In this document: one piece after another, positions 9,957 to 53,601 of the stretch
Numbering within the stretch: the stretch's first letter is position 1
Layout of the letters: the number at the start of each line of letters is the position of its first letter
Assembly (NCBI RefSeq): GCF_000758165.1
Contig: NZ_JNUP01000049.1
Location: forward strand, 1 to 64,000
Length of the DNA stretch: 64,000 nt
Source: Spirochaeta lutea
GTDB taxonomy: Bacteria > Spirochaetota > Spirochaetia > DSM-27196 > Salinispiraceae
Direction of reading: 5' to 3'
Position numbers and translations under genes: made by a program
Notes under the pieces: generated by a model
The model's input: the letters and a program-made list of their open reading frames with translations, nothing else
Databases searched by the model: none
What the model was told of the DNA's origin: nothing

Positions 9957-11000
9957 ATGGGCTTTTTTGATAAATTTCTAAGTCTCTGGGTTGCCCTCTG
10001 CATCGCCCTGGGGGTGCTGATTGGTATCTTGCTTCCCGGGGTGCCGGGGTTTCTGGGTGGATTGGAATACGCGGGGGTTAATATTCCTATTGCGGTGCTC
10101 ATCTGGCTGATGATTCTGCCCATGATGATGAAGATTGATTTTTCCAGTCTCCGAAATGTGGGGCGCAAACCCAAGGGGCTGGTGGTGACCCTGGTGATGA
10201 ACTGGTTGATCAAACCTTTTACCATGTACGGCCTGAGTTATCTCTTTTTTAGGGTGATTTTCCGCGCCTTCCTGCCCCCGGAGCTTGCCAACGAGTACCT
10301 TGCCGGGGCCGTGCTGTTGGGGGCCGCACCCTGTACTGCCATGGTGTTTGTCTGGAGCGCTCTGACCAAGGGGGACAGCGCCTACACCCTGGTGCAGGTG
10401 GCAATTAACGATCTGATTCTGATTGTGGCTTATGCACCGATTGTTATGTTTCTGTTGTCCCTGGGCTCGGTGCCGGTTCCCGCGGATACGGTGCTGTTTT
10501 CGGTGGTAGTGTTTGTGGTGCTTCCTTTGGCTGCAGGCTGGCTGTTCCGCTGGGCCACGGTGCGCCGCCGGGGGCTTGAGTGGTTCACCGGGGTGCTTCT
10601 GCCCAAAGTTTCGGTGGTTACCCCTGTGGGGCTGTTGTTAACCCTGGTGATGATTTTCAGTCTCCAGGGACAGACCCTGGTGGATAATCTCCTGCATATT
10701 TTGTTGATCGCCCTGCCCCTGGTAATTCAGACCTTCCTCATTTTCGGTCTTGCCTACCTGTGGGCCAGGGTTTGGAAGATTCCCCACTGCATCAGCGCAC
10801 CCGCGGGGATGATCGGAGCAAGTAATTTCTTCGAACTGGCAGTGGCTGTGGCTGTGGCGGTGTTTGGGGTCAATTCGGGGGCCGCCCTTGCCACGGTGGT
10901 GGGCGTTTTGGTGGAGGTGCCGGTGATGCTCGCCCTGGTTCGTTTTGCAAACCGAACCCGGTCGTGGTGGCCCGAGGGGCTCCGGGAGGGGGCCCAGTGA
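9957..11000 (+). CDS. acr3: Arsenite efflux permease Acr3
   Basis: Ten-helix As(III) carrier of the ACR3 (bile/arsenite/riboflavin transporter) superfamily, 347 aa. Hallmarks: helix 1 SLWVALCIALGVLIGILLPG, the loop LMILPMMMKIDF, and the substrate Cys in LLGAAPCTAMVFVWSALTKGD. It completes the pathway started by the two reductases: arsenate is reduced and arsenite expelled. AAAGGAA precedes ATG 9957. Downstream is repeat-rich DNA. Confidence 0.95.
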   Translation: MGFFDKFLSLWVALCIALGVLIGILLPGVPGFLGGLEYAGVNIPIAVLIWLMILPMMMKIDFSSLRNVGRKPKGLVVTLVMNWLIKPFTMYGLSYLFFRVIFRAFLPPELANEYLAGAVLLGAAPCTAMVFVWSALTKGDSAYTLVQVAINDLILIVAYAPIVMFLLSLGSVPVPADTVLFSVVVFVVLPLAAGWLFRWATVRRRGLEWFTGVLLPKVSVVTPVGLLLTLVMIFSLQGQTLVDNLLHILLIALPLVIQTFLIFGLAYLWARVWKIPHCISAPAGMIGASNFFELAVAVAVAVFGVNSGAALATVVGVLVEVPVMLALVRFANRTRSWWPEGLREGAQ

Positions 11001-11110
11001 GGCTCGATTGGGCCCAGTAGGCCCGAGGGAGCTAAATAGGCCTCCAGGGGCCCAGTGAGGTCCGAGGGGGCCCCAGTGAGGCCCGAGGGGGCCCCAGTGG
11101 GCTTCTGCTC
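10987..11110. repeat. Degenerate G-rich tandem repeat
   Basis: About five imperfect units built on GGGGGCCCCAGTGAGGCCCG, beginning in the last codons of acr3. Units in the right half are nearly identical to each other and the left ones have decayed. No coding or RNA signal. Confidence 0.7.
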
Positions 11111-11276: not shown

Positions 11277-11416
11277 GTCGGGAAACCAGCGTCGAAGAAC
11301 CAGCGTCGAAGAACCAGCGTCGGGAAACCAGCGTCGGGAAACCAGCGTCGAAGAACCAGCGTCGAAGAACCAGCGTCGAAGAACCAGCGTCGAGGAATCA
11401 GTGTCGAGGAACCGCT
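11277..11416. repeat. 14-bp minisatellite, ten units
   Basis: Ten head-to-tail copies of GTCGAAGAACCAGC or its variant GTCGGGAAACCAGC; the last two are diverged. Because 14 is not a multiple of 3, any reading frame changes from unit to unit, so it is not a protein repeat. It lies in the 494-bp gap between the convergent acr3 and oxidoreductase genes. Confidence 0.9.
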
Positions 11417-46073: not shown

Positions 46074-49043
46074 TTACCCTGTCAGGTAGTCCATGTAGGC
46101 CTGCATATCCTCCGGCACCGGTTTTTCGGCCTTTTCGAAGCGCTTGAACCGGCTCTCCAGCTTGAGAATCTCCTTCCGGGTGCGGTTGTTGTACTTCATA
46201 TCCAGATCGCTGAAGAGGGGACGCTTTGCCATCTCCTGGCGGCGTTCCTTGGGAAAGGGGCAGAACCGGTAGAAGATATCCCGGGCTACAGGGTTCAGCC
46301 TGACCTTGTCCTCGTACTCGTGCATCACCCAGGTGTAGTAGTCCAGGGCGAAGCGTTCACGTTCCGTGCGGGTTTTCCCAATGAAGTCCTTGATCTTTTC
46401 CTTATGGGCCGAGGAGAGGTGGGGGTTCTTTTTATAGAAGGCCAGGTAATCGTAGTACGCACCCGAGAGCCCCCCTTCTACGGCATCCATCCAGTTGGGC
46501 CCCGCTACAACCCGGGATAGTTCCCATCGAAGATGGGCTAACACGTGGGTTATGGCCTGATCTGCCTGGCCGGCGAAGAAGGCCGGCACCATAATTCTGC
46601 CCGGGGTATCCTTTTTGGTACCGTCGATCTCCTGCCACATCATCATCCGCGAGCCTGCTCCGGGGTACAGGACAATGTTGGGTGCCACGGATTTTTTTAC
46701 CAAATCGCTGCCGAAATGGTGGCGGCAAACTGTTTCCCGGTGAAACAGGGTGAAGTCCCGTTGATGAACGGCCTCAATCCGGCTGGATAGGGAGTGGGGA
46801 TCCTGGAACAGCCCGGATATCCGACCGCCTTGGAGAGACTGGCTGCAGAGAACCGGCAGGGCGTGGTTGCGGCCTCCTGCCAGAAGCCGGGAAAGCTGGG
46901 GGGCTATGAGACTGAGTTCCCAGCGAACCCGGTCCTCGGGGGTGTCCTGGTATTCTTTCTGTTTGCCGCGTTTACCCTGGGGCTGCTTCCTCTGTTTCCG
47001 GAGGGTTTCTGCGAAGCCCTCTCCCATTTCGGTAATGGAGGGTTGCACGGTCCCGGTGTAAATTTTTTCCAGAAAATAGGGAAGGGTCATAACGGGAACG
47101 GGTTGTTCCAGGGAGAGAACCTGGGAATACAGGGCATCCAGCTCGATCAGCTCCTCCCGGGTAACCAGGGTTTCATCCACCAATCCGAGGTGAAGCATGA
47201 TGCCGGGAATGAATCCCTTGAGGTCCGAATCGATGACCTTCAGGAAACAGCGCTCATAGAGCTTCCAGTACCGGGAGGATATCTGGCTGCGGAGCTGCTG
47301 AGCTTCCTTAGTGCTACTGAAAACATCCTCCATTCCGGCAAGACGCTGAATGAGTTCGGTAAACTCCCGGTTGAAATCGCTGCCCATCTCGGCAAACCCC
47401 AGCAGCTGGGCCAAGAGCCCGTTGTACTTATCCAGCCGCCCGAGCCTGTCGGATGTGCCGCCCCCGGATTCCCCGGCCACAGCACCAACTCGAGCCCCCG
47501 GAGCACCAACCCCGGCCACAGCACCAACTCGAGCCCCCGGAGCACCAACCCCGGCGGCACCGGCACCGGTACGCAACTCGGCGCCGGCTGCTCCGGCGGA
47601 TAGTAGGCCTGAGGCAGTAGCGGCTGATGCCGTGCGGCTGGTGAGGTGCTTGAATCCTGGATAATCCCTGGAAATATCCCGGCCCAGGAGCTTCAACCCG
47701 TCTACCCGGCAGCGCCAGGAAAAGCGTTGGAGATAGGTTAAAAACCGGCCGTAGGATGGTTCGCCGGACAGGGAATATCCCGCCCCGCCGACGGATTGGG
47801 GAGCATTCGACCCGTCAGGCGAAACTGAGCTGCCTGATTCGGATCCAGCCATCGACCCGGCGACGGACGCCCCCGGGGCGGTTCCTGAGGCAGTTCCTGA
47901 GGCAGTTCCTGAGGCAGTTCCTGAGGCAGTTCCTGAGGCGGTTCCTGAGGCGGTTCCTGAGGCGGTTCCTGAGGCGGTTCCTGAGGCGGACTGGTCACCG
48001 GCAGGGGGTCCCTCGGCAGCTATGCCCGGCGGGGTACCGGGTCCCGAGGCCATAAAGCCGTAATGGTCCAGCTCCAGGACCCAGCCCCGGGGGCCGTAGA
48101 GCCTGGAGGTAAGATCCAAGATCGCTTGCACCAGATCCCTGTTGGCGGTCAAGAGGGTGGCCAAATACTGGGACAGCAGCTGGAACACATAAAAGTTGCT
48201 GGGCTCATCCTGGGAAAAAATCCCCGCCAGGGTCTTATCGTCCTTGGCAATGAGGCGCTTGAGGAACAGGTATTGGGGATAATCAATCATGTTTTCCACG
48301 GGATGGTCATCAAGATCGCCGTAGAGCTCCAATGCCTCCTGGACCCGGTCTAAAAACAGGTTAGGATCCCAGGGTTCCAGATTCACCGATTCAAGGGCTC
48401 TGGCCCTCCCCTGGAGATAGGCCGCATACTCCCCCAGCGGGGAGGTCTCCCGGGTCGGCTTCTCGGGTGGTTCGGGACTCTGGCCGCCATGAACCGTCCC
48501 GGGGGATTGGGATTCCTCTTCAGGTTGGGGTGGTTCTTGGGGTGATTCGAATGCCCGGACATCCCCCAGGGCCTGGGGGGGCAGGGCCAGGGCAATGGAA
48601 TCCGCGATGGATGCCAGCTTATGCCAGAGGTAGCGGTAGTTTTTTGCCAGGAAGAGGGCAGAATCTATTCGCTGGCGCAGCGCCCGGAGTACCTGGAGGT
48701 TGAGGGCCATGTTCTTCTGGAAGGTCTCCAACAGCTCCTGGGATTCCACGGGTGTACTAGAAATAATACATTCACTCACGGTCCGGATGGACCATTGCTC
48801 GGGTTCATCCCGGGTGAAGCTGGACACTCCGCACACCGATTCACCCTTCAGCAGGCCCACCCGGTGGCTTTGCTCCATGATCTGCTCCGGCCGGATGGGC
48901 AGCTCCTCGCCGGAAAAGGCCAGGAGCTCCGCAAGCCCGGAGTGCAGCAGGATCAGGGCGCGGTTGGGCCGTCCCTGGATGGTCAGGATGGTTCCCGGAG
49001 GAATACTCTGGTGGTTAAGGGCTTGGGCTGGATCAAAGAGCAT
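46074..49043 (-). CDS. Large cyclic-nucleotide-binding-domain protein with tandem repeats
   Basis: 989 aa. Residues about 1-125 form a CRP-like cNMP-binding barrel (QSIPPGTILTIQGRPNRALI, GLLKGESVCGVSSF), but no DNA-binding domain follows. The rest is soluble and unrecognised: a Pro/Glu-rich patch (about 172-210), a helical region, nine ASGT repeats (about 352-388), two 13-residue VGAPGARVGAVAG-type repeats (about 500-525), and a long charged C-terminal half probably conserved for structure. No Shine-Dalgarno; TAAAAT lies 6 nt before ATG 49043. Possibly a spirochaetal signalling or scaffold protein; function unknown. Confidence 0.75.
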   Translation of the reverse strand: MLFDPAQALNHQSIPPGTILTIQGRPNRALILLHSGLAELLAFSGEELPIRPEQIMEQSHRVGLLKGESVCGVSSFTRDEPEQWSIRTVSECIISSTPVESQELLETFQKNMALNLQVLRALRQRIDSALFLAKNYRYLWHKLASIADSIALALPPQALGDVRAFESPQEPPQPEEESQSPGTVHGGQSPEPPEKPTRETSPLGEYAAYLQGRARALESVNLEPWDPNLFLDRVQEALELYGDLDDHPVENMIDYPQYLFLKRLIAKDDKTLAGIFSQDEPSNFYVFQLLSQYLATLLTANRDLVQAILDLTSRLYGPRGWVLELDHYGFMASGPGTPPGIAAEGPPAGDQSASGTASGTASGTASGTASGTASGTASGTASGTASGTAPGASVAGSMAGSESGSSVSPDGSNAPQSVGGAGYSLSGEPSYGRFLTYLQRFSWRCRVDGLKLLGRDISRDYPGFKHLTSRTASAATASGLLSAGAAGAELRTGAGAAGVGAPGARVGAVAGVGAPGARVGAVAGESGGGTSDRLGRLDKYNGLLAQLLGFAEMGSDFNREFTELIQRLAGMEDVFSSTKEAQQLRSQISSRYWKLYERCFLKVIDSDLKGFIPGIMLHLGLVDETLVTREELIELDALYSQVLSLEQPVPVMTLPYFLEKIYTGTVQPSITEMGEGFAETLRKQRKQPQGKRGKQKEYQDTPEDRVRWELSLIAPQLSRLLAGGRNHALPVLCSQSLQGGRISGLFQDPHSLSSRIEAVHQRDFTLFHRETVCRHHFGSDLVKKSVAPNIVLYPGAGSRMMMWQEIDGTKKDTPGRIMVPAFFAGQADQAITHVLAHLRWELSRVVAGPNWMDAVEGGLSGAYYDYLAFYKKNPHLSSAHKEKIKDFIGKTRTERERFALDYYTWVMHEYEDKVRLNPVARDIFYRFCPFPKERRQEMAKRPLFSDLDMKYNNRTRKEILKLESRFKRFEKAEKPVPEDMQAYMDYLTG
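47472..47549. repeat. 39-bp tandem duplication within the cNMP-binding gene
   Basis: Two identical 39-bp units (47472-47510 and 47511-47549), 13 codons each, Ala/Gly/Val/Pro-rich. Confidence 0.9.
47881..47988. repeat. 12-bp tandem repeat, nine units, within the cNMP-binding gene
   Basis: GTTCCTGAGGCA or GTTCCTGAGGCG repeated nine times. Read on the minus strand it encodes Ala-Ser-Gly-Thr repeats. Copy-number changes would stay in frame. The first four or five units share the A ending and the others the G ending, as expected from stepwise expansion. Confidence 0.95.
48540..48558 (+). repeat. Copy of dispersed GGTGATTC motif, inside the cNMP-binding gene
   Basis: GGGTGATTCGAATGCCCGG, with AATGCCCG retained, in the Pro/Glu-rich patch of the gene. 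Confidence 0.5.
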
Positions 49044-49084: not shown

Positions 49085-50521
49085 TTATGGATAATCATTC
49101 TGACCAAAAATGGCTACACGGTTGCGACCGCTGTTCTTGGCTTGGTAGAGGGCCTGGTCCGCCCGGCTGATGAGGGTATCCAGGGAGAGAACCGGGTCTT
49201 GGGAAAGCTCGGCCACGCCGATGCTTATGGGCACCGGTGCACCCAATTCGGGCTGGTTCAGGCCGGCTGAGAGACTGCGGAGCCGCTCAGCCAGGGCACC
49301 GGCCTCGCTTCCGGGGGTTTCGGGCAGCACCGCCACGAACTCCTCGCCCCCCAATCGGCAGAGCAGATCGGTGGTCCGCATCTCCTGTTGCCAAAGATTT
49401 GCTAACCGGATCAGAACCTTGTCGCCCACCCCATGGCCGTGGGTATCGTTAACCTGTTTAAAAAAGTCCAGGTCGATCATCAGGACCGATAGGGGGTGCT
49501 CCGACCGCCGGGCAGTTTCGTAAAGCAACCGTCCCTCGATGTGCAGACGGTGGCGGCTGCCGAGGCCGGTGAGGGGATCGGACATGGCCAGCTGATAGGT
49601 CTTGTCGTGAAGCCGGGCGTTTTCCAGGGCGATGGCTATGTGGTCCGCTACAATCCCGGCCAGGTGCATGTGGCGCTGCTGGTAGGTGTCCGGGGTGGTG
49701 CTGTCCAGGGTAAGTAATCCGATCACCTCGCCGCCCCGGATGAGGGGAATCCCCATCCAGGAGAGGATTGGCCGTTCCTCTTTCATGTAGGTAAAACTCG
49801 GAAAATCCCGGGAAAGGTTGTTGGTTGCCATGGGGTGTTTTTCTTGGATGGCCCTGGTGCTGAGGCTGTTTTTCTTCGGAAAGGGAATGGTGAGCTGGTT
49901 GACCGCCCGGGGATTCTTGAATCCGAAGGAACCCACTACCCGGGTGTGGTCCTTTTCCAGTATTTGAAGGCTTGCGGTGTCGTAGGGGATCAGTCGCCGG
50001 GTATGCTCGAGGATGTGGGTAATGGTTTCTTGAAGGTCCAGGGATGATCCGATAACCCGGACGATTTCCTGGAGGGTTTCCAGTTCCTGTAGATCACGCT
50101 CCAGCTGAAGTTCCATCTCCTTCAGGCGGCTGACATCCGCATCGCTGCCGATATAGTAGGCCGCCCTGCCGTCGGGTAGACGGCCGACGGTCCTGCCCCG
50201 GTTGTAGATCCAGTGATACTCATCCCGGGCGTCCCGCATCCGGAACATTTCATCAAAGATCCGGGACTCCCCGCTTAGGGCCCGCCGGGTGGCTTCCTCT
50301 ACCCGGGGCCGGTCTTCGGGATGAACCAGATCCAGCCAGCCCTCGTGGCTTTTAATATCCCGGTCGGGCAGCCCCATGGACGTCCAGACATCGCTGGCGA
50401 AGGTACGCCCCGTGGCATACTCGGTTATAAAGACCCCGACCTCCGAGAGGGCTTGCTGGAGCTCCGGCTCGGTAAAGAACAGGTGGTAAGGAGAATTGTC
50501 TTTTTGTTCGCGAGGTGCCAT
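49085..50521 (-). CDS. Diguanylate cyclase with PAS and GAF domains
   Basis: 478 aa soluble protein making c-di-GMP. PAS about 20-130 (YHWIYNRGRTVGRLPDGRA), a short coiled coil, GAF about 150-305 (MGIPLIRGGEVIGLLTLDS), GGDEF about 315-470. The active loop reads RLGGEEFVAVLP (GGEEF, catalytically competent), with DPLTGLGSRHRL and DLDFFKQVNDTHGH also present. An RxxD inhibitory site is not obvious. TATACT (50533-50528) lies 6 nt before ATG 50521 and no Shine-Dalgarno is seen. Same direction as the cNMP-binding gene, 41 bp apart, suggesting a nucleotide-signalling pair. Confidence 0.95.
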   Translation of the reverse strand: MAPREQKDNSPYHLFFTEPELQQALSEVGVFITEYATGRTFASDVWTSMGLPDRDIKSHEGWLDLVHPEDRPRVEEATRRALSGESRIFDEMFRMRDARDEYHWIYNRGRTVGRLPDGRAAYYIGSDADVSRLKEMELQLERDLQELETLQEIVRVIGSSLDLQETITHILEHTRRLIPYDTASLQILEKDHTRVVGSFGFKNPRAVNQLTIPFPKKNSLSTRAIQEKHPMATNNLSRDFPSFTYMKEERPILSWMGIPLIRGGEVIGLLTLDSTTPDTYQQRHMHLAGIVADHIAIALENARLHDKTYQLAMSDPLTGLGSRHRLHIEGRLLYETARRSEHPLSVLMIDLDFFKQVNDTHGHGVGDKVLIRLANLWQQEMRTTDLLCRLGGEEFVAVLPETPGSEAGALAERLRSLSAGLNQPELGAPVPISIGVAELSQDPVLSLDTLISRADQALYQAKNSGRNRVAIFGQNDYP

Positions 50522-52164: not shown

Positions 52165-53601
52165 ATGAAAGCAGCAGTCCTCCTCTCGGGAGGGGTCGAC
52201 AGCTCAGTGGCACTGTGGGAAGTAAAAAAGCGCGGCTACACGGATATTACTGCCTTTTACCTGAAGATTTGGCTCGAGGATGATGTGTCCTACCTGGGGG
52301 AGTGTCCCTGGGAGGAGGATTTGTCCTATGCCCGGGCGGTCTGTGAGCAGGCGGGGGTGCCTCTTGAGGTGGTGAGCCTTCAAACCGAGTATTTTAATAA
52401 AGTTGTTGAGTATGCCCTGGCGGAGCTCCGTTTGGGCCGTACGCCGAGTCCGGATATTTTTTGTAATCAGCGGATCAAGTTCGGGGCCTTTTTTGATAGG
52501 GTCCAGGGTGATTTTGATGTGGCGGTCTCGGGGCATTATGGTGTGGTGGAGCATGATGAGGCGGGGTACGCCCATCTGCATCGGGCTCCCGACCCGGTGA
52601 AGGATCAGACCTACTTCCTCAGCCATCTGAGCCAGGATCAGCTCCGGCGGCTCTGGTTTCCCATCGGTTCCATGCAGAAGAGCCAGGTGCGCGCTCTGGC
52701 CCAGGAGCTGGATTTGCCCAACAAGGATCGCAAGGATAGCCAGGGGATCTGCTTTCTGGGCAAGATCAAATACCCCGACTTCGTCCGCCACTACCTGGGA
52801 GAGCAGCCCGGGGAGATCCGGGAGCTGGAGACCGGCAAGGTCCTGGGGCCCCACAGGGGCTTCTGGTTCCACACCATCGGCCAGCGCAGCGGCCTGGGCC
52901 TGGGTAACGGTCCCTGGTACGTGGTGCAGAAGGATCCGGCGGCCAACATCGTCTACGTGAGCCACCAGGAGCACGTGGCCGATCAGACCCGCTCCAGCTT
53001 CGAGGTGGCGGAGCTCACCTGGCTCTACGGTACCAACCCTGACACCGGGCTGCCCTCCATGCCGGGAATTTCCTCTATAGATGATTTGAATGCCAATCTC
53101 ACCGCCAAGCTCCGCCATGGCCCCGAGCTGGTGGGCTGCCGCCTTGACTGGGTGGCTGATAGTCCGGGTCCTGCGGGGGCAACCCAGCCGGTTGAGGACT
53201 CGGTTCAGGCAACGCGCCCGGCCGATGGGCTGAGCCCGGAGGCGCCGCGAGGGGCCGGGGCCTCGGTTCAGGTAACGAGCCCGGCCGATGGGCCGGGGGT
53301 AGGGGTGAGCACCTCTCAGGCCGCGAATTCGCCCCAAGCAACGCACCAGGCTAAAGAGCTGAGTCCCACCCAGGCCGCGAATCCGCCCCAGGCAGCGCAA
53401 GAGGCTAAAGAGCTGAGTCCCACCCAGGCCGCGCGGCCCCCCCAATCCGAATCCCCACCTTTCATCCGGCCGAACCCCGGTTTCCGCCTCCGGGTAACCC
53501 TGGACGTACCCGACCGGGGCGTTGCTCCCGGGCAGTTCGCCGTGTTCTACCACGGTACCGAGTGTCTGGGCAGCGGCAAGATCCAGGAATTCTGGACGTG
53601 A
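52165..53601 (+). CDS. mnmA: tRNA-specific 2-thiouridylase MnmA with a large C-terminal insert
   Basis: 478 aa against about 350-380 for the family. Adenylates and thiolates U34 of Lys, Glu and Gln tRNAs. PP-loop LLSGGVDSSVAL (residues about 6-17), catalytic Cys pair C100 (DIFCNQRIKFG) and C196 (SQGICFLGK), QTYFLSHLSQDQL. The C-terminal barrel is split by about 100 low-complexity residues (about 331-432), after which the family end FRLRVTLDVPDRGVAPGQFA resumes and reaches ECLGSGKIQEF. The insert has internal 54-bp repeats. GGGAG precedes ATG 52165. First of four coupled tRNA-modification genes. Confidence 0.95.
   Translation: MKAAVLLSGGVDSSVALWEVKKRGYTDITAFYLKIWLEDDVSYLGECPWEEDLSYARAVCEQAGVPLEVVSLQTEYFNKVVEYALAELRLGRTPSPDIFCNQRIKFGAFFDRVQGDFDVAVSGHYGVVEHDEAGYAHLHRAPDPVKDQTYFLSHLSQDQLRRLWFPIGSMQKSQVRALAQELDLPNKDRKDSQGICFLGKIKYPDFVRHYLGEQPGEIRELETGKVLGPHRGFWFHTIGQRSGLGLGNGPWYVVQKDPAANIVYVSHQEHVADQTRSSFEVAELTWLYGTNPDTGLPSMPGISSIDDLNANLTAKLRHGPELVGCRLDWVADSPGPAGATQPVEDSVQATRPADGLSPEAPRGAGASVQVTSPADGPGVGVSTSQAANSPQATHQAKELSPTQAANPPQAAQEAKELSPTQAARPPQSESPPFIRPNPGFRLRVTLDVPDRGVAPGQFAVFYHGTECLGSGKIQEFWT
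53349..53433 (+). repeat. 54-bp direct repeat in the mnmA insert
   Basis: A 31-bp identical segment at 53349-53379 and 53403-53433, period 54 bp (18 codons), encoding AKELSPTQAA-type units. Looser repeats built on GCCCGGCCGATGGGC occur at about 53216 and 53277. Confidence 0.85.

What the first reader, a model, noticed from the sequence alone, without database searches (positions are those of the whole stretch)
46074..49043. Giant cNMP-binding protein with in-frame length-variable repeats next to a diguanylate cyclase
A CRP-like nucleotide sensor lacks a DNA-binding domain and is joined to about 860 residues of unrecognised sequence. Nine 12-bp and two 39-bp repeats would change protein length without breaking the frame. 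The next gene upstream makes c-di-GMP. This may be an undescribed second-messenger effector.
Basis: partly seen in the sequence, partly recalled or inferred. Interest (0 to 1): 0.55.

Follow-up and report, generated by a model that had tools for sequence, protein, structure and literature searches.

The report
Spirochaete CRP-like protein linked to flagella
This gene belongs to a widespread but apparently uncharacterised protein family that joins a CRP-type sensor fold to a well-conserved domain of unknown function, and its distribution in spirochaetes and gut bacteria follows that of flagella, so it may be a missing part of motility control.

Summary
The 989-aa frame, its degenerate CRP-like domain, the in-frame repeats and the adjacent diguanylate cyclase are all real. 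What is conserved is the protein. Subfamily A (CRP-like domain plus a ~440-aa C-terminal domain) gives strong matches in 139 of 392 Spirochaetota genomes and 84 of 250 genomes from the family of a Lachnospiraceae strain; a shorter subfamily B without the CRP-like domain occurs in most Spirochaetia, this genome included. No Pfam or NCBIfam family convincingly covers the C-terminal domain. Its confident model (pLDDT 90) resembles zincin metallopeptidases only weakly, and HExxH is missing at that helix. The cAMP-contact Glu and Arg of CRP are not conserved. In the Lachnospiraceae draw 82 of 84 carriers have fliF against 47 of 166 non-carriers; a control gene shows no such link. In a few lineages the gene sits among flagellar genes, in most it does not. 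Best reading: a non-DNA-binding, probably non-catalytic regulator or scaffold tied to flagellar motility. Identity is firm; function is inferred.

The parts
46074..49043 (-). 989-aa protein, subfamily A: CRP-like domain + helical middle + conserved C-terminal domain
48714..49013 (-). degenerate CRP-like (cNMP-binding) beta-roll, residues about 11-110; canonical cAMP-contact Glu and Arg not conserved
48585..48710 (-). long helix, residues 112-153, in the place of the CRP dimerisation helix (role inferred)
48045..48437 (-). helical middle region, residues about 203-333, largely conserved in two close orthologs
47763..48041 (-). linker 1, residues 335-427, predicted disordered, almost wholly absent from two orthologs
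47877..47989 (-). 12-bp tandem repeat, 9.4 copies (Ser-Gly-Thr-Ala), inside linker 1
47454..47606 (-). linker 2, residues 480-530, predicted disordered, shorter in two orthologs
47471..47555 (-). 39-bp tandem repeat, 2.2 copies (13 aa), inside linker 2
46077..47453 (-). C-terminal conserved domain, residues 531-989; model pLDDT 90.2, pTM 0.88; weakly zincin-like, no HExxH
46521..46529 (-). Arg-Trp-Glu signature (residues 839-841), nearly invariant in subfamily A (Arg-Trp-Gln in B)
49085..50521 (-). upstream diguanylate cyclase (PAS-GAF-GGDEF, GGEEF motif); neighbour in this genome, not conserved

Best explanation
The protein is subfamily A of an uncharacterised family: an N-terminal CRP-type beta-roll with its long helix, a helical middle and a compact ~440-aa C-terminal domain. 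Shown: membership and distribution, no recognised DNA-binding domain, no HExxH, loss of the usual cAMP contacts, repeat units confined to this copy among the orthologs compared. Inferred: it is a cytoplasmic, probably dimeric regulator or scaffold. The CRP-like domain receives an input (an unusual ligand or a partner protein). The C-terminal domain, a zincin-like fold that has lost its catalytic motif or else a new fold, binds a target as a non-catalytic module. The target is most likely part of flagellar assembly or motor control. The repeats merely lengthen two disordered linkers.
For: Profile A1: strong matches (E 1e-50 or better) in 139 of 392 Spirochaetota genomes; profile A3: 84 of 250 genomes of the family of G440, which holds Eubacterium plexicaudatum locus L097. 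Flagellar link in that family: 82 carriers with fliF, 2 without, 47 with fliF but not the gene, 119 neither (odds ratio 104); control gene cbiD against fliF in the same 250: odds ratio 0.54. Spirochaetota, A or B at E 0.001: both 314, gene only 9, fliF only 29, neither 40. In G065, G077 and G089 the gene lies in a flagellar cluster after fliM, fliN and a tandem cNMP protein, with fliD next in the two whose contig runs on; in G069 it lies 7 bp before fliQ-fliR. C-terminal model pLDDT 90; no HExxH at the expected helix.
Against: The co-occurrence is not corrected for phylogeny: in a rough gene tree the 35 retained tips that I labelled Lachnospiraceae form one clade (support 0.83), and the empty corner in Spirochaetota is largely one clade (f16). 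Several flagellated groups lack A and B (Borrelia-sized f26/g36 genomes, f19/g27, f42/g123); nine genomes have the gene and no detected fliF, two of them 99% and 93% complete (G122, G365). fliF was counted at E 0.001; only 42 of the 250 Lachnospiraceae genomes pass its curated cut-off. Of 35 Spirochaetota loci not chosen for a contig shared with fliF, 2 have a gene of my 17-sequence flagellar set within 3 kb and 3 within 8 kb; of 80 loci scanned as Lachnospiraceae, 0 within 8 kb (only 28 and 45 have 3 kb on both sides, and the set misses other flagellar genes). Nothing of that set lies near the window copy or its close orthologs. The zincin likeness is weak (Foldseek best E 0.18; VIA Z 6.2 at most).
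Confidence: 0.45

Rival explanations
1. Housekeeping role (envelope, division or translation-linked) in lineages that happen to be flagellated; the fliF association is shared ancestry.
For: Gene context is mostly non-flagellar. In 10 of the 20 loci a ~115-aa protein that reads like an HNH protein (one tested by Pfam) lies just upstream, often after genes that look like def and fmt. The sampled Lachnospiraceae sequences form one clade.
Against: The control gene gives no positive association with fliF; the gene lies among flagellar genes in three families by label, f39, f50 and f43.
Confidence: 0.25
2. Cyclic-nucleotide effector: the CRP-like domain binds cAMP, cGMP or c-di-GMP (as described for Xanthomonas Clp) and the adjacent cyclase supplies c-di-GMP.
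For: CRP fold; cyclase 41 bp upstream on the same strand. Clp as a c-di-GMP-binding cNMP domain appears in a reference title seen in PMC4013479 and as PDB 3iwz. Light acting through an adenylyl cyclase alters Leptospira kobayashii swimming on a subsecond scale, and added 8-bromo-cAMP has a like effect within a minute (PMC9043183, passages).
Against: Canonical Glu and Arg positions not conserved in 24 and 45 aligned members, though within two columns Glu occurs in 20 and Arg in 10 of the 45; cyclase not next to the gene in 8 of 8 close orthologs.
Confidence: 0.15
3. The C-terminal domain is an enzyme of an unrecognised type using its near-invariant Arg, Trp, Glu, Asp and Lys residues.
For: Strong conservation of polar residues across 53 members and of the R-W-E/Q signature.
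Against: No convincing family in Pfam or NCBIfam, no solved-sequence relative better than E 0.14, HExxH not present.
Confidence: 0.12

Closest known systems
CRP/FNR superfamily (cNMP-binding domain, PF00027)
   Same: N-terminal beta-roll and long helix
   Different: no HTH DNA-binding domain; Glu/Arg contact positions not conserved; ~860 further residues
Gluzincin/zincin metallopeptidase fold (M4, M1, M34 and similar; family names recalled)
   Same: 44 of the 50 VIA rows for the C-terminal model are metallopeptidase entries, 25 of them one protein, lethal factor; about 13 different proteins
   Different: Z 6.2 at most, Foldseek E 0.18 at best; HExxH absent at the helix; R-W-E/Q instead
Clp of Xanthomonas (c-di-GMP-responsive CRP homologue)
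   Same: CRP-type domain; would fit a cyclase neighbour (works-like idea)
   Different: Clp keeps a DNA-binding domain (recalled); none found here
YcgR/PilZ flagellar brake
   Same: soluble nucleotide-sensing regulator acting at the motor (works-like idea only, recalled)
   Different: no PilZ domain matched
Spirochaetia ~550-aa hypothetical protein (subfamily B)
   Same: homologous C-terminal region and R-W-E/Q signature
   Different: no CRP-like domain; extra coiled-coil-like insert; a tRNA-Ala gene in the fetched stretch in 24 of 29 loci

Membership tests
CRP/FNR transcription regulators | cNMP-type beta-roll | tested here: met
   (below the Pfam cut-off in this copy)
CRP/FNR transcription regulators | C-terminal HTH DNA-binding domain | tested here: not met
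   no HTH in Pfam/NCBIfam scans of this protein and two orthologs
cAMP/cGMP-binding cNMP domains | phosphate-binding-cassette Glu and Arg | tested here: not met
   CRP E72 position Glu in 1 of 24, R82 position Arg in 0 of 24; second alignment 0 and 1 of 45, with Glu in 20 and Arg in 10 of 45 within two columns
cAMP/cGMP-binding cNMP domains | ligand binding in vitro | not testable with these tools
   needs purified protein
c-di-GMP receptor of Clp type | c-di-GMP binding by the CRP-like domain | not tested
   the residues that bind c-di-GMP in Clp were not compared here
PilZ/YcgR motor regulators | PilZ domain | tested here: not met
gluzincin metallopeptidases | HExxH active-site motif | tested here: not met
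   0 at the helix in 151 A and 29 B records (127 and 29 distinct C-terminal ends); 2 A records have HExxH elsewhere
gluzincin metallopeptidases | zincin fold | tested here: inconclusive
   VIA Z 6.2 at most, 44 of 50 rows metallopeptidase entries; Foldseek not significant
the unnamed family found here, subfamily A | full-length homology with CRP-like domain and C-terminal domain | tested here: met
flagellar-system proteins | encoded with, or only together with, flagellar genes | tested here: inconclusive
   strong uncorrected co-occurrence, rare linkage

The most novel reading that the evidence does not exclude
An unrecognised flagellar regulator: a CRP-type input domain fused to a catalytically dead peptidase-like fold that works at the motor or export gate, shared by spirochaetes and motile gut Lachnospiraceae through an ancient gene transfer, and part of the unknown link between cyclic nucleotides and rapid swimming control in spirochaetes, next to a tandem cNMP protein in some flagellar operons.
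Probability: 0.15. Interest if true: 0.85.

Novelty: new variant of a known kind. Interest (0 to 1): 0.55.

Why it matters
If it acts in motility it would be a new class of flagellar regulator. [quoted passage not shown]

Tried and rejected
Repeats as a phase-variable device: rejected as the main point. The units are absent from two orthologs, lie in segments under pLDDT 50, and a 54-bp repeat lies in another gene of the same window (52165-53601, which reads like a tRNA-modifying sulfurtransferase). Strain-level length variation could not be tested.

Cyclase-effector pair: rejected as a conserved unit. No GGDEF gene beside the gene in G002, G050, G398 or L074-L078. L078 has one 3.5 kb away; of 44 further loci scanned for the motif (L040, L041, L151-L192; L179 among them lacks the family gene), 1 (L182) has one.

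FliH-like NCBIfam match (E 0.004, residues 355-390): only the low-complexity repeat; dropped. Pfam hits of single C-terminal members (best E 0.0025 in 1 of 53; one B member E 0.0007) are scattered over unrelated families; taken as chance. Best sequence-level PDB hits for the C-terminal profile (E 0.14 and worse) likewise. In the plasmid collection 2 records match, neither over 80% of the query, both Leptospira interrogans.

Seven Lachnospiraceae genomes with weak cNMP-only matches (E 4e-6 to 7e-4) were dropped before the count; kept, the carriers would be 91. The first genome-contig scan found nothing. The CRP-like domain was looked at in 24 members, not in every strong match. Whether zincin folds other than those listed match is not settled; the absence of a stronger match is no proof of a new fold.

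Literature: searches listed no paper on this protein by title or start of abstract; four of them showed only part of the papers found. I read passages only of PMC9043183, PMC3726837 and PMC4013479; of the rest I saw the listing. Only open-licence PMC papers are held, so this is no proof that nothing is in print.

Corrections made while checking: one search counted neighbours by ORF rank with one stretch (L179) that had been fetched at a wrong place and lacks the gene; one search repeats the count by distance on the 35 that have it.
Full report
What is there. The frame 46074-49043 on the minus strand is open for 989 codons. Residues 11-110 form a degenerate CRP-like domain. Pfam scores this copy below its cut-off (17.3 against 27.5 bits), but the orthologs in G002 and G050 pass it. 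The predicted fold matches CRP, PKA regulatory subunits and channel cNMP domains (Foldseek E from 2e-4; VIA Z about 12), and a 24-sequence profile finds PKA RII-alpha and CRP/CAP chains at E 2e-10 to 1e-8. No HTH was found. The 12-bp array (9.4 copies, 98%) and the 39-bp array (2.2 copies, 100%) have periods that keep the frame. The upstream gene is a PAS-GAF-GGDEF cyclase with an intact GGEEF, 41 bp away on the same strand.

What is conserved and what is not. Aligned to the full-length orthologs of G002 and G050 (49% and 47% identical), the repeat units have no counterpart, and the model gives both linkers pLDDT under 50. Another gene of the window carries a 54-bp repeat, again a multiple of 3, so linker expansion is not peculiar to this gene. 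In eight close orthologs (G002, G050, G398, L074-L078) no diguanylate cyclase stands next to the gene. The repeats and the cyclase neighbour are therefore local features.

The family. The three-ortholog profile matches 323 of 392 Spirochaetota genomes. Of these, 139 are strong (E 1e-50 or better), 4 of them within the window's own class. The other 155 matched class members match weakly, and a profile of the ~550-aa homologue without the CRP-like domain, subfamily B, explains them. The window genome, G002, G398 and G409 hold both. A genome-contig scan found 77 loci: five Spirochaetaceae/Spirochaetales MAGs (L074-L078), the rest mostly Lachnospiraceae by title, such as Roseburia, Pseudobutyrivibrio, Butyrivibrio and Agathobacter. 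In a rough tree of the C-terminal domain, rooted on B, the 35 retained tips that I labelled Lachnospiraceae form one clade (support 0.83) beside a group of L166 (Brachyspira-like, inferred), L183 and L112, nested among spirochaete sequences. That suggests an ancient transfer, spirochaete to Lachnospiraceae (inference).

Fold and chemistry. The C-terminal domain alone (residues 531-989, 53 sequences) is predicted with pLDDT 90.2 and pTM 0.88. Foldseek finds nothing significant (best E 0.18). VIA lists 50 entries of which 44 are metallopeptidases (families recalled; 25 of the 44 are one protein, lethal factor), best Z 6.2, a level at which the tool warns of chance likeness. At the helix where zincins carry HExxH the family has R-W-E (subfamily A: Arg 148, Trp 141, Glu 149 of 151 records) or R-W-Q (29 of 29 B records). 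HExxH is not present there in any of the 180 records, which hold 127 distinct A and 29 distinct B C-terminal ends; two A records have HExxH elsewhere. Isolated residues at spacing like that of a metal site persist in part of the family. So either a peptidase-like fold without catalysis or a new fold. In the CRP-like domain the CRP Glu72 position is Glu in 1 of 24 members and the Arg82 position Arg in 0 of 24; in a second alignment 0 and 1 of 45, though Glu occurs in 20 and Arg in 10 of those 45 within two columns. Canonical cAMP binding is unlikely, not excluded.

Link to flagella. Spirochaetota, 392 genomes: gene and fliF 314, gene only 9, fliF only 29, neither 40. Adding three genomes seen only with the B profile gives 317, 9, 26, 40. 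The empty corner is largely one clade, f16 (probably Sphaerochaetaceae, which lack flagella; name inferred). The family of G440 (L097, Eubacterium plexicaudatum; taken to be Lachnospiraceae), 250 genomes: 82, 2, 47, 119 after dropping 7 weak cNMP-only matches; fliF counted at E 0.001, where 129 match and 42 pass the curated cut-off. Control in the same 250: cbiD against fliF 66, 80, 63, 41 (odds ratio 0.54, p 0.02). cbiD against the gene itself gives 0.41 (p 0.002), so ancestry does shape such tables, but in the other direction here. One control does not replace a tree-based test.

Gene order. In G065, G077 and G089 (picked because gene and fliF share a contig) the gene follows fliM, fliN and a ~410-aa tandem cNMP protein, and precedes fliD in G065 and G077; in G089 the contig ends after the gene. 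FliM, FliN, FliD and the cNMP protein were named by Pfam in G065; the other names (flgD, flgE, motA, motB, fliL) are my reading of the sequences. In G069 the gene lies 7 bp before fliQ-fliR (Pfam-named). Among 35 other Spirochaetota loci, that one included, 2 have a gene of my 17-sequence flagellar set within 3 kb and 3 within 8 kb; some of these loci supplied the set. Among 80 loci scanned as Lachnospiraceae (one, L112, is a Clostridiaceae record), 0 within 8 kb. Only 28 and 45 of them have 3 kb on both sides. Linkage is therefore suggestive, not general.

Against the flagellar reading: Borrelia-sized genomes (f26/g36) and other flagellated groups lack A and B, nine genomes keep the gene without a detected fliF, and the window copy has no neighbour from the flagellar set in the 6 kb scanned.

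Known context. [quoted passage not shown] The tandem cNMP protein beside this gene in some flagellar clusters looks like the more likely nucleotide sensor; the present protein, with its altered pocket, may be its partner (inference). A Leptospira interrogans homologue of 708 aa on a 350-kb replicon is annotated only as hypothetical protein.

Verdict. It is an undescribed conserved family (as far as the searches named above show) with a CRP-type domain, possibly tied to motility; direct second-messenger sensing and a conserved role of the repeats are not supported.

Noticed in passing
window 53317-53433: 54-bp tandem repeat (2.2 copies, 92%) inside an insertion of the gene 52165-53601, which reads like a tRNA-modifying sulfurtransferase.
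   Followed up: no
window 11284-11413 and 10986-11099: Further tandem arrays: 14 bp x 9.3 (not a multiple of 3) and 21 bp x 5.7.
   Followed up: no
L013-L039, L042, L043: Subfamily B gene with a tRNA-Ala gene in the fetched stretch in 24 of 29 loci, mostly just upstream; a small convergent membrane-like protein often follows.
   Followed up: partly
L171:11718-12944, L172:10668-11909, L173:12300-13535: Tandem cNMP-domain protein of about 410 aa in the flagellar cluster, its second domain with a canonical-looking FGE...R cassette: a candidate cyclic-nucleotide sensor of spirochaete motility.
   Followed up: partly
L152-L154, L156-L160, L162, L164: A ~115-aa protein that reads like an HNH protein (Pfam-tested in L157 only) just upstream of the family gene in 10 of the 20 loci, often after genes that look like def and fmt.
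   Followed up: partly
G135, G159, G217, G244, G284, G287, G291, G295, G316 (f26/g36): Borrelia-sized genomes with fliF in which subfamily B is undetected or only a weak remnant.
   Followed up: no
L193:5281-7404 and L194:4001-5239: Leptospira interrogans homologue (hypothetical protein) on a 350-kb replicon; in a second strain the matching stretch has no listed gene.
   Followed up: no
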